From Astropecten irregularis (Eukaryota; Echinodermata; Asteroidea; Paxillosida; Astropectinidae), in assembly GCA_963971285.1 (NCBI GenBank), contig OZ020248.1:13888001-13952000 (forward strand): a stretch of DNA of 64,000 nt, given 5' to 3'. This document shows, in pieces, positions 926-61,800 of the stretch. The notes beneath the pieces are model-generated. The model made no database searches and was not told the origin of the DNA. It saw only the letters and a program-made list of their open reading frames with translations. Position numbers and translations under genes: made by a program. Within the stretch, counting starts at the first letter, position 1, and every line of letters begins with the position of its first letter.

Positions 926-3900
926 CTGTCAATCAAAGATATAGTCATTGAAAAGTGAACAAAAGAAAAATAGAGTAGAGTGGGATTCGAACCAGTGACC
1001 TCCGGGATACAGTACCGGCACTCTTACCAACTGAGCTATCCAGCCTAACGTTGGTGGTGTCCCTAATAGTCAATTATCTTTGTTTGTTTGGCAGTCAGAA
1101 GCCATGAAACCACTCACATGCCGTTATGTCTCAAGGATCATTTAAGATACGCCCAGCATTAGCAATGCTGCAACCTGAGAAATGGTACATGGGGGATCAC
1201 TCAAAGAGGATGTGGCTTTTTAATTGACATAATCATCAAATAACCACAAGGGAAAAATTAATTTATTATCAGTTCTACAGGTCAATTAAGCATTTAAAAC
1301 TATGGTCTGCCAAGGCCTATATAGATGTTCAAGTGGCCAGTAGACAAAGTAAAGGTAATATCATACTTTGCTTTTTGTCAAAGAAATACAGATTCATGGG
1401 CAAAAATATCAAGACAGATACAGTAACAGTCATCTGTGAACATTTCCAGTCCCATTTTATTGAGAAAGCAGTGAAAAACACTTGTGGTATTTTCAAATCT
1501 ATTCACAGGAGTTTTGATCTCACCCCAAGATCAAAACTGTTTTTGGTCTTTTTTTGTGTTTTTGGTTGAAAAATGGAATGCCACTAAAAGAAACGACCAC
1601 TATAACGGACAATCTCTGTGCACCCCGGCATGTTCGTTATAGTGGCGTTCCACCGTACTCTTTTCTGTAAAAATGCAGCATTTCAGGCAGAAAAATTGTA
1701 ATGGTGTGTTTGTACCATCACCATCTTTATACCCTGTAAGTTATACGTAAATCTGTGAACATTCCTCCTTTTGTATGCTAGTGCTACCCAAGGACTATTT
1801 ATTCAAAATTCTAACCTGTGCACAGGCATCATAGAAACCGGCCAGTGAATCCAGGGCTCGTCCCTTTGTGTAGAATCCAATGATATTCTTCATGATCTCA
1901 GGATCTTTCCTCCAGTCTAGAGATTGTAAGTAGTTAGCTGCCATGACGTAGATCTCCTTCTGACGGGACACTCCGGCAAAGAAGATAATCTTCTCCGTGT
2001 CTCCAGACTTCAATAATGCTCGCATGGCCTGTGAAATCGAGATGCAAATAGAAAGATTTGAGGCTTTGCATGGTGACAATTGGTATGTGGATCGGTTTAC
2101 GGAAACACCATGTAAGAATCGTTTCTACTTTCGCAGTTCTTATTTCGTTCGCTCTTCTCGTTAGGTCTCGTTTCGACTAGCCTGCTCTAGTCTGGGTCTA
2201 GGGTCTCCCGATAATGACTAGAGCAGGCTGGTTGAAACGTTGCGAACGAAATATGAAGTGCGAAAGTATGAACGATTCTTACATGGTGTTTCTGCAAACC
2301 GATCTACACACAAATATTTCAATAATGAATAATGTCAATGCATTTCAGAGCCTGATAAAATAAGGTTGTAATGAACTGCTTTTCAATGTCAAGGTCAATG
2401 TCACGCGATGTAGTGTTGCTGGTAGCGACATTTTGGCTGCTAGGACTGCTAGCCTTCATTAGGCTACTGAAGAACTGGATGCTGTGGTGTCAGTTTAAAT
2501 CCTGTTGGTCCATGTCTGTGTTCACCGTATCAGTACTAACAGTAATGTTGGACTGGATGCTCCTCATTTGGAGGGCGATAGTGTGCTATTGGACTGGATG
2601 CTCCTCATTTGGAGGGCGATAGTGTGCTATTGGACTGGATGCTCTTCATTTGGAGGGCAATAGTGTGCTATTGGACTGGATGCTCCTCATTTGGAGGGCG
2701 ATAGTGTAATATTGGACTGGATGCTCCTGATTTGGAGGGCGATAGTGTACTATTGGACTGGATGCTCCTCATTTGGAGGGCAATAGTGTACTATTGGAAT
2801 GGCTGCTCCTCATTTTCAGGGCAATAGTGTACTATCGGACTGGCTGCTCCTCATTTTCAGGGCAATAGTGTACTTTTGGACTGGATGCTCCTCATTTTGA
2901 GGTCAATAGTGTACTATTGGACTGGATGCTCCTCATTTTGAGGTCAATAGTGTGCTATTGGACTGGCTGCTCCTCATTTTCAGGGCAATAGTGTACTATT
3001 GGACTGGATGCTCCTCATTTTGAGGGCAATAGTGTACTATTGGACTGGCTGCTCCTCGTTTTCAGGGCAATAGTGTACTATTGGACTGGATGCTCCTAAT
3101 TTTCAGGGCAATAATGTACTATTGGACTGGATGCTCCTCATTTTGAGGGCAATAGTGTACTATTGGACTGGATGCTCCTCATACTACCTCCAAGCACTTA
3201 CCTTAACCTTGTTTCCAGCCTGAGTATATTTCTTAGTAGCCAGATGATAAGATCCTTGTAAGAAGCAGATATCAGCAACCTTCTCTAGTAGTTTCAGGCG
3301 CATTTCATTATTCTTGTTGTCCTTGGATAATGTCATCTTCTCAGCTAGCCGTTCAGTGATAGGAACACTCTGTGACTGGCACAAGTCTAGGGCTTCATTG
3401 TACTGCAAATACAAAACATAGAATGCAACAAATAAATCGAAGGGCGACCCTTAGGCTGTGTCTCAAATATCTGGCTGTGGCTGCAAATTACACATGTACC
3501 TATGGCAGCCACTAGCCAGTGACTGCAGTCGTTTCAATAGACTTGTGTGCTATTTGCGGTCGCAGCCAGAGAATTGGGACACTGCCATACTGAGTACTGA
3601 GCAGAAATATCTATGTAGCAATATTAACTTCCAATTATTGAAATTCGAACAAAAAGTCTGAAGAATTTTTACAAAGAATTATCTTTAAAGGTAAACTCAT
3701 ACTTTTGGTTTTTATTAAAAGAATCAAGGAAGATACAGTATTAACCGTCATCTGTAAAATTTCAAATCCCATACATTGCTCACTTTTTGAGAAAACTGTG
3801 AAAAACAGCCACAGTATTTTCAAATCTATTCACAGGAGTTAGAGTTAGTCATTGGTTTGACTCTTTTCTGGATAAATACAGTATTTCAGGCAGAACAATA

Positions 3901-58802: not shown

Positions 58803-61800
58803 GTATGTACAAATATGATGAATGGTAATACTACTATGAAATCATTATTCTCGAATGGACCCCCTTCTTTTGAAAATTCCATGTATTAGATAAAAAATAT
58901 GTGAACAGAATATTAGTTTTGACGGCCCAAAAATTTGGAAGAATATTCCCCTTGAAGTTCGTTCCTGTCTAACAGTTGATTCAATTAAGAAGAAATTGAA
59001 AGCACACTTAAATTCTCCTTCTGACCTGTTTAAAATACTACTTAGAAAGTAAATCACCTTTGCCTGTATTTTCCATGTGAAGTGCCTTGAGCAGAGTTAT
59101 CTGGAAGGGTGCTATATAAGGATTTATCATTATTTATTTATTATTATTATTATTTATATGGCCAACAAGAAACACACATGTACAGTGACAATGGTGAATT
59201 TAAAAAACATACATAATTGAAAATGGGACGGAAGGTGGAAGGTAGGGGAAAGAGGTGGAGGGTGTGGAAGGAAGATGGGGGCGGGGCAGTGGAGGTTGGG
59301 GTGGGGAGTGGACGTTATTAGAGGGAGGTGGTGGAGGTTGTGGTTGGAAGGAAGGATAAAAATATACATTTCAAGCTGGACAGGGTAGGCAATATTGTTC
59401 TGTAGTAGTCAATCTCAATTTGTGCGGATGAATTAAAATGTGTCTAAAAATTTGTTTGTTTGTTTGTTTGTTTGTTTTCAGATTTGTCTGGTAGCCCAAA
59501 CGCAAGATGAGTTGGAGCGAGCGATGGCATGCTTAAACAATGCACGGAATGAACTGGAACAGACTGAGTGGAGGTCAAAGGTCAGCGATCTCAAGGCCAA
59601 GTGTGACGAGATGATTGTAATCTTGTCGGTAAGCATCGGATTGGTACTTATTTAAATCTACAGTTTGTCTTGTTTTGGTGTTTTGCTAACATTGCATCCT
59701 CTCCTGATGATGACTAGAGCAGGCTAGTCGAAACGTTAAGACCTAATTGCAAGAAGTGCGAACGAAATAGAAGTGCGAAGGTACAAACGATTATTACATG
59801 GTGTTTCCACAAACCGATCCACATACCAATTGTCACCATGCAAAGCCTCAAATCTTTCTTGAGATTACTTTTTTTGATAATAATTTTTCTTCAGGGAGAT
59901 ACAATAATGCAAATTAGGCTTGTGCTTCATTAGAGTATACTCAGTGCTTTTTCAGGTGTGATTTGAACCCACGACCTCCTGCTTTCTAGTGCAGATGCCA
60001 TACCAATAAATAGACCACCAAGCTATCTGGGGTCAGCAGGGTCAGTCGAATCCAATATCGCAGCGAGTACTCCGATTTATTTAATCGTTATTACTTTTGT
60101 TGATGAGATTTTTTTTCAAAGCCAGTTTGCCGTCATGTGTTCATGTGAAGGTTGTTTCCAAGTTGAAGGCGGAGTTGATGTACGCTAAGATTGAGCTGGA
60201 TAGAACCAGCAAAGAGGGAGGACACATTGGAGAAGCAAGGAAGAGAGTGGTGATGCTGGAAGATAGAATGGAGAATCTGCTTAGTAGATATCGCAAAATG
60301 CCCAGGAAGATACAGGTAAATGAAGATCTGTCCAAGGGCAAGAACTCTCTTAATCGTTGTCTCAGTGCCCCTGGTTGTTTTCTTGAAGCCCTCGGTCATT
60401 GCCTTGGTGGCTCTGGTCATTGCCTTGGCGGCCCTGGTCATTGCCCTGGTAACCTTGGTCATTAATTGCCCTGCTGCCTCTGGTCATTGCCTTTTTGCCT
60501 CTTGTAATTGCCTTGGTGCCCCTGGTCATTGCCTTGAAGCCCCTGGTTATTGCCTTGCTGCCTCTGGTCATTGCCTTGGTACCCCTAGTCATTGCCTTGA
60601 TGACCCTGGTCATTGCCTTAGCGCCCTTGATTTTCGCCTTAGGTCATTGCTTTGGTGCCTCTGGTCAATCACTGCCTTTGTATCCCTGGTCATTGCCTTA
60701 GTGCCACTGGTCATTACCTTGAAGCCCCTGATCATTGCCACAGTTTCTCTGGCCATCTTTTTGGTGCCCCTGCTCACTGCTTTGGTGCCACAGATTTTCG
60801 CCCCTGGTCATTGCTTTGGTGCCCCTGGTCATTACCCTTGTAGCCCCTGGTCACTGCCTTTGTTCCTTTGGTTATTGCCATGGTGCCCCTGGTCTTTGCC
60901 TTGATAAAATATTGTATTGACGTTGCTTTTGTCCTGTAGCCCTCTGCAGACAGCATAGACAATGAAGATGAAGTACAGCCAGTTGATGAACACATCACCA
61001 GCCAAACTCTCACCCCAGACACTACAGACTCCCCCTCAAAGAGAGATAAAACCCCCACGGATAATGAACAAGCCCACTTTGAACAAATAGGAACAGGAGA
61101 AGGAGATAAGGAAGGGCCCAAACCAGAACGTTCCATTCTGAAACAGGGGGTGGTGATGAGTAGCAGAGGGGGAGGTGATGCAACTGAAGAGATGTCATCT
61201 GAGAAACGGACAAGTGAGAGGAGATTGTCATTTGAGCAAGGTATGTGAGATGCACGTTGCCTAAATGTCACTGGTTCTGTCTCAGCTGTCTCAGAGTCAA
61301 ACAGAACTTGACTGGGATTGGTGATGTTTTTCAAAACAAAACAAATTACACTCAAAAGTTCAATAAAGCATATATTTAACAAGCACTCTCTCTTGCTTAT
61401 AAAAAAAATAGAATGAGTACATTACCGAGTACATTTTGAAACTAGAGCATTATGGAGCAACGGAAGCATTATGGAAGCATTATGGAAGCATTATGGGAAA
61501 TTTTGGATGGAAGTTATAGCATTGTTACAAATTGGTACTCGAGTTGTACTTGGGTTCGAGAACGAGTACAGAGTACTCCAACACTGGCATATTATACACC
61601 ATGCACAATAAGCTTCTTTTTCTCTGTACAATCACGCATATGAATAGGAATTATTTGAAGAATCATTCTCTGTCTTATTTTCTCATACCTTAGGTTCACC
61701 TTCTGGATCAAGACAGATTCTTGAGATGGGAGCAGTTTCTTCAGGAAGTGAGGTGTGAATACTCATACAATGCAGAACAAGATCTGTATTCAATTAGGCT

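What the first reader, a model, noticed from the sequence alone, without database searches (positions are those of the whole stretch)
2548..60890. All four minisatellites lie immediately downstream of 5' splice sites
The 41-bp array begins 19 bp into an IFT140 intron. The 10/40-bp array begins about 24 bp in, the 96-bp array about 66 bp in, and the 21-bp array about 50-70 bp into an intron of a different gene on the opposite strand. I saw no minisatellite of unit 10 bp or more elsewhere in the window. Four of four in this position, in two genes and both orientations, suggests a bias: array birth linked to the transcribed donor-proximal zone (R-loops, nucleosome edge, replication-transcription conflict) or tolerance of expansion only there.
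Basis: partly seen in the sequence, partly recalled or inferred. Interest (0 to 1): 0.75.

Follow-up and report, generated by a model that had tools for sequence, protein, structure and literature searches.

The report
Repeat arrays lodged inside starfish introns
Four blocks of repeated DNA in what looks like a starfish genome do sit just inside introns, but three of the four are built from units found elsewhere in the genome, and the family sampled most lies close to exons at either end of introns, so they look more like spreading repeats tolerated in introns than repeats born at splice sites.

Summary
The four arrays begin 19, 25, 66 and 49 bp inside introns. Three lie in IFT140: peptides joined across the arrays align to solved IFT140. 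The fourth gene has no Pfam or PDB match; its array also ends 34 bp before the acceptor.

The donor-linked-birth reading is weakened. Three of four units occur elsewhere: the 21-bp array at 39 other merged places, the 40-bp array at about 20, the 96-bp unit in 39 shorter matches plus one more array. Of 30 sampled 21-bp arrays, 18 had a recognisable exon in a flank; the donor was nearer in 11, the acceptor in 7. What survives is nearness to exons: a crude detector finds an exon boundary within 250 bp of 14 of 26 family arrays and 216 of 1330 random points (best-contrast threshold). A survey of 54 WD40 exons found long arrays on 4 donor sides and 0 acceptor sides, suggestive only.

Best reading: dispersed minisatellite families tolerated in introns near exons. 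Donor hugging of the three IFT140 arrays stays unexplained. The host looks like a starfish from mitochondrial gene order (recalled).

The parts
2548..3182 (-). 41-bp x15.5 minisatellite, 19 bp after the donor; no other place found in the genome
   Evidence: TRF (1 match, 1 candidate); gaps
2029..3201 (-). IFT140 intron (1173 bp) holding the 41-bp array
   Evidence: motif positions; joined peptide aligns to PDB IFT140 across the join
33317..34548 (-). 96-bp x12.8 array, 66 bp after the donor; unit related to a dispersed element of about 88 bp
   Evidence: TRF (40 of 123 candidates scored): one further array (C11:13.20 Mb, 92%) and 39 shorter matches
32333..34614 (-). IFT140 intron (2282 bp) holding the 96-bp array
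   Evidence: PDB alignment across the join
40859..41468 (-). ~40-bp x14.8 array (shorter substructure), 25 bp after the donor; member of a dispersed family
   Evidence: TRF (20 other loci by my merging, 11 with matches of 200 bp or more, 67-76%)
40467..41493 (-). IFT140 intron (1027 bp) after the first coding exon, holding the 40-bp array
   Evidence: donor, acceptor; PDB alignment across the join
60365..60905 (+). 21-bp array (about 25 copies), 49 bp after the donor and 34 bp before the acceptor; member of a dispersed family
   Evidence: TRF (126 matching pieces in the 40 candidates scored of 1285); gaps
60316..60939 (+). 624-bp intron of an unidentified gene, nearly all array
   Evidence: open frames on either side; no homology found
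62095..62185 (-). single copy of the element related to the 96-bp unit, outside any array
   Evidence: G000:C11:13950095-13950185, 85%

Best explanation
The arrays are mostly members, or amplified copies, of dispersed tandem-repeat families of a starfish genome. Arrays reach many sites, in both orientations, and are kept where they do least harm: inside introns, between the 5' splice site, which needs only a few intronic bases, and the branch-point and pyrimidine zone of the 3' splice site. In the 21-bp family, removing the array leaves introns of 44-333 bp (11 cases with both splice sites visible), so these arrays end up tens to a few hundred bp from a donor and from an acceptor. Shown: dispersal of three of four units, both orientations and nearness to exons in the 21-bp family, and no donor preference in that family. 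Inferred: spread by recombination or circular DNA followed by local growth, and purging elsewhere. Not explained: why the three IFT140 arrays, in introns of 1.0-2.3 kb, all hug the donor.
For:: the 21-bp array matches 39 other places after merging pieces by eye (40 of 1285 candidates scored); flanks of 30 of those 39; 18 have an exon in a flank (11 sense, 7 antisense to the unit as written in the window), 11 have exons on both sides. Exons were recognised by eye; Pfam confirms several, two of them joined across a family array (COG8/Dor1 E 9.1e-20, ARF E 2.1e-23), and single exons for eIF3F/JAB, anoctamin, IFT80-type TPR and LDLR-b; boundary detector 14 of 26 family arrays against 216 of 1330 random points (Fisher p 1.6e-5; points not independent, threshold chosen after seeing six); the 96-bp and 40-bp units of the window and the 119-bp unit of a random locus also occur elsewhere; array ends fall at many unit phases and flanks differ, so no fixed transposon ends are seen.
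Against: The three IFT140 arrays all hug the donor in longer introns. The 41-bp and 43-bp arrays gave one match each, and the 19-bp array only weak matches elsewhere, so not all arrays are dispersed. 12 of 30 family arrays had no exon that I recognised. Gene context was sampled only for the 21-bp family, not for the other dispersed ones. The spread mechanism is not shown.
Confidence: 0.5

Rival explanations
1. Donor-proximal birth: transcription-linked events just downstream of 5' splice sites (R-loops, nucleosome edge, conflicts) create the arrays there.
For: Window: 4 of 4 within 66 bp of a donor. WD40 survey 4 of 54 donor against 0 of 54 acceptor sides. Random locus L013: a 119-bp array starts 2 bp into an intron.
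Against: The 21-bp family shows no donor preference (11 against 7). Three of four window units occur elsewhere. Sense-strand GC skew is negative in 7 of 9 arrays and about zero in 2, against a mean of +0.02 in 50 array-free donor sides.
Confidence: 0.15
2. Ordinary local slippage or unequal exchange in introns with no targeting; nearness to donors is what short introns plus a protected 3' splice zone give, and the IFT140 trio is chance.
For: Array-less introns of 44-333 bp in the 11 two-sided family cases. Private or nearly private 41-, 43- and 19-bp arrays exist.
Against: Units shared by tens of loci are hard to explain by separate local births. The IFT140 introns are 1.0-2.3 kb (combined p 0.007, post hoc).
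Confidence: 0.2
3. A working splicing element: arrays are kept because their RNA structure or repeated motifs help pair the splice sites of their intron.
For: Sense RNA of the 41-, 96- and 119-bp arrays (first 300 bases) folds better than shuffles (z -5.0, -4.7, -4.7). No sense-strand donor-like site above the cut in 9 of 9 arrays, against 2.3 per kb in random loci.
Against: The other 6 of 9 arrays fold no better than shuffles (z -1.1 to +2.9); the antisense strand of the 41-, 96- and 40-bp arrays folds strongly too (z -3.9, -4.8, -6.1), and palindromes repeated in tandem inflate z. Copies of one unit are not independent, so the lack of decoy donors is not significant by my estimate; antisense has few too.
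Confidence: 0.05
4. Mirages as in amphioxus: tandem duplication of an exon-intron boundary.
For: Same setting, introns next to splice sites; the L013 array begins 2 bp after its donor.
Against: Exon end plus donor does not align to the array better than shuffles in 9 of 9 arrays (p 0.07 to 0.95; for two of them only 16 and 36 bases of exon were held). The donor-fused start of the L013 array occurs exactly once in the genome, with two inexact places that lack the GT.
Confidence: 0.03

Closest known systems
Dispersed euchromatic satellite repeats of Tribolium (TCAST; PMC3411249 and PMC5844308, passages seen)
   Same: Satellite-type units at many euchromatic sites, many in introns (29 of 68 elements in the 2012 paper); the 2018 paper reports enrichment in introns for all families pooled and very rare overlap with exons; circular-DNA recombination or transposition proposed there.
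   Different: The 2012 paper saw no preference for introns. TCAST repeats are preferentially single repeats and have a heterochromatic parent; here arrays reach tens of copies, a heterochromatic parent was not sought, and nearness to exons within 250 bp is the notable feature.
Amphioxus mirages (PMC3087553, PMC3902484; passages seen)
   Same: Minisatellite-like tandem repeats at exon-intron boundaries of a deuterostome; reported not to disturb splicing.
   Different: Mirage units contain the exon-intron boundary; no such unit was detected here.
CeRep25B minisatellite of C. elegans (PMC4039745; passages seen)
   Same: A minisatellite family with 75% of repeats in introns according to that paper.
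   Different: Reported there in clusters on chromosome III and less on II and linked to multiple alternative splicing; splicing was not testable here.

Membership tests
Dispersed euchromatic satellite/minisatellite family | Tandem arrays sharing one unit at many unlinked loci | tested here: met
   21-bp and 40-bp arrays of the window and the 119-bp array of L013; for the 96-bp unit mostly single copies plus one other array; 41-bp array not met
Dispersed euchromatic satellite/minisatellite family | Association with genes or introns | tested here: met
   21-bp family only: 18 of 30 with an exon in a flank, by eye; 14 of 26 against 216 of 1330 random points. Not tested for the other families
Dispersed euchromatic satellite/minisatellite family | Spread by circular DNA or a transposon carrier | not testable with these tools
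   No fixed ends seen; four arrays on C12 and C15 share one flank, which points to segment copying there
Amphioxus mirage | Repeat unit spans an exon-intron boundary | tested here: not met
   9 of 9 arrays p 0.07 or more
   21-bp family 11 against 7; WD40 survey 4 against 0 of 54 each; outside the window together 13 against 8, p 0.38, two WD40 arrays with unseen acceptor left out
Introner-type intron-making element | The element supplies both splice sites and the introns are new | not tested
   No annotated relatives at hand; intron ends differ between loci by eye

The most novel reading that the evidence does not exclude
This genome carries several mobile minisatellite families whose insertion or survival is steered to intron DNA within about 250 bp of exons, so that repeat arrays are a main cause of intron growth, with locus-private arrays showing a true donor-side bias.
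Probability: 0.25. Interest if true: 0.65.

Novelty: new member of a known kind. Interest (0 to 1): 0.38.

Why it matters
If the exon-near lodging holds genome-wide, it gives a natural system to ask whether tandem repeats enter introns by targeted insertion or are purged elsewhere, and how much of intron length they explain. It also warns that 'all minisatellites sit at donors' can arise from dispersed families plus short introns.

Tried and rejected
Amphioxus origin: suggested to me by the mirage literature; set aside because the mitochondrial contig C168 (L003) has COX1 (Pfam) followed by frames that I recognise as ND4L and COX2 on the plus strand, with an ND1-like frame and a tRNA cluster (6 genes found) before it; I recall this as the asteroid order. 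The GFP family search gave nothing, but its controls did not ring either. Species not determined. R-loop reading tested by GC skew. Mirage reading tested by alignment. Donor fusion of the 119-bp family tested by pattern: exact only at L013. Donor pattern plus 21-bp unit genome-wide: 7 rows at 6 places, 0 in the backward-read control, which also reverses the unit and so is a weak control. The boundary detector has low sensitivity (threshold 11: 22% of WD40 donor sides, 4% of acceptor sides, in the stretches scored), so it says nothing about donor against acceptor; threshold 11 gives the strongest contrast of six printed (family against random: 15/26 v 424/1330 at 9, 14 v 308 at 10, 14 v 216 at 11, 9 v 158 at 12, 4 v 98 at 13, 4 v 59 at 14); the random points come from 14 loci, and some family flanks are shorter than 250 bp.

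Dropped or partial rows: 6 of 20 requested regions did not exist; 14 random 10-kb loci were used. One search listed 150 WD40 matches; I copied 83 into (long open frames and some same-gene repeats left out) and the script kept 54 exons, all fetched on both sides. On acceptor sides TRF listed only 3 short repeats of 2-3 copies. One of the 4 donor-side arrays (L089) is irregular: its best row has 2.1 copies of 113 bp, a lower row 7 copies of 41 bp. rows were merged by eye into 39 places; 30 were fetched, 9 not (6 on C12, one each on C23, C27, C1); 3 of the 30 have a flank that is still array; 4 with one shared flank were dropped. In the random loci three arrays of 4 or more copies and 150 bp or more were found (L013 twice, L018): only L013 1607-2110 was placed in an intron; the L018 flanks were printed and I recognised no exon; the other was not examined. 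Of 10 peptides, 2 gave no match.
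Full report
What is there. The window is bases 13,888,001-13,952,000 of contig C11 of a 475.7-Mb genome in 168 contigs. The mitochondrial contig has the gene order that I recall for starfish (several genes recognised by eye). TRF confirms the four arrays. Splice motifs put their introns at 2029-3201, 32333-34614 and 40467-41493 (minus strand) and 60316-60939 (plus strand), with donor gaps of 19, 66, 25 and 49 bp and acceptor gaps of 519, 984, 392 and 34 bp. Joining the exons across the first three arrays gives peptides that align to solved IFT140 through the junction. 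The fourth gene has no match in Pfam or PDB, but by my reading of the frames its intron is phase 0 and open on both sides.

Are the arrays independent? Mostly not. The 41-bp array has no other match. The 21-bp array matches array DNA at 39 other places after I merged the pieces by eye, with only 40 of 1285 candidates scored. The 40-bp array has 20 other loci, 11 with matches of 200 bp or more. The 96-bp unit resembles an interspersed element of about 88 bp: of 41 matches one is the window array, one a second array 0.7 Mb away, and 39 are shorter, including one in this window at 62095-62185 (40 of 123 candidates scored). In a random locus a 119-bp array that starts 2 bp into an oxysterol-binding-protein-like intron also belongs to a dispersed family (138 matching pieces in the 40 candidates scored of 596). 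Of two further arrays met in the survey below, the 43-bp one gave a single match and the 19-bp one only weak matches elsewhere.

Is there a donor bias? Three samples. First, the window itself, the discovery set: relative positions 0.035, 0.06, 0.063 and 0.59, Fisher-combined p 0.015. Second, a gene-anchored survey: 54 WD40-containing exons, one per gene neighbourhood, 560 bp on each side. Arrays of 5 or more copies and 200 bp or more: 4 of 54 donor sides and 0 of 54 acceptor sides; Fisher two-sided p 0.12, one-sided sign test 0.06. By my cut points, used, the four start 27, 34, 43 and 101 bp into their introns (sequences); the one at 34 bp, in a RACK1-like gene, is again the 21-bp family, and the irregular one at 101 bp ends about 8 bp before its acceptor. 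Third, the 21-bp family: flanks of 30 of 39 arrays. Eighteen have an exon in a flank; 11 are sense and 7 antisense to the unit as written in the window; the donor is nearer in 11 and the acceptor in 7 (p 0.48). In the 11 with both ends visible the mean relative position is 0.46, and the introns without the array would be 44-333 bp. Cases outside the window together: donor nearer 13, acceptor nearer 8, p 0.38, leaving out two WD40 arrays whose acceptor was not reached (they would make it 15 to 8 if counted as donor-near). A donor bias is therefore not shown; for private arrays in long introns it remains open.

Is there an exon-proximal bias? A crude detector (donor or acceptor score plus coding score) finds a boundary facing the array within 250 bp in 14 of 26 family arrays and in 216 of 1330 points of 14 random loci at threshold 11 (Fisher p 1.6e-5). 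The points are not independent, the detector is insensitive, and threshold 11 is the best of six; the family is in excess at all six, least in relative terms at 9 and 13. With exons on both sides in 11 of 30 arrays by eye, I take this as real for this family; the other families were not sampled.

How it works. Shown: dispersal of three of four units; in the 21-bp family both orientations, nearness to exons and no fixed ends; no exon sequence detected in nine arrays; a C-rich sense strand in seven of nine. Inferred: array DNA spreads by recombination or circles, grows locally, and survives where splicing signals leave room. Sense RNA structure is strong in three of nine arrays and absent in six, so a structural splicing role is not general.

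What is known. Dispersed satellite repeats in introns are described in Tribolium: no preference for introns in PMC3411249, enrichment in introns for the pooled families in PMC5844308 (passages). A minisatellite largely in introns is described in C. elegans (PMC4039745, passages). Minisatellites at exon-intron boundaries, called mirages, are described in amphioxus (PMC3087553 and PMC3902484, passages); their defining feature, a unit spanning the boundary, was not met here. Searches for starfish or echinoderm tandem repeats in introns listed no report of this pattern, in an open-access library only and judged from the listings.

Noticed in passing
window 45003-45179 (+): A frame matching Pfam Chibby (E 5.4e-11), upstream of IFT140 and on the opposite strand.
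   Followed up: no
window 36308-37033 (-): A 242-aa open frame that looks like a retrotransposon gag inside IFT140 (recognised from memory, not searched).
   Followed up: no
L002 (G000:C131:32162-33484): A COX1 frame without inner stops on a separate contig, possibly bacterial.
   Followed up: no
L004 (G000:C25:9951047-9952018): A partial COX1 with 7 TGA codons inside a 14.4-Mb contig, probably a nuclear copy of mitochondrial DNA.
   Followed up: no
L005 7209-7274 and several flanks of 21-bp arrays: A short motif around CCTAGCAGGATCTTT recurs near arrays; perhaps a small inverted-repeat element.
   Followed up: no
flanks of 21-bp arrays on C12 and C15 (L133, L137, L151, L157): Four arrays share nearly the same 5' flank, so part of this family has spread as a larger copied segment.
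   Followed up: partly
window 62095-62185 (-): Single copy related to the 96-bp unit, outside an array.
   Followed up: partly
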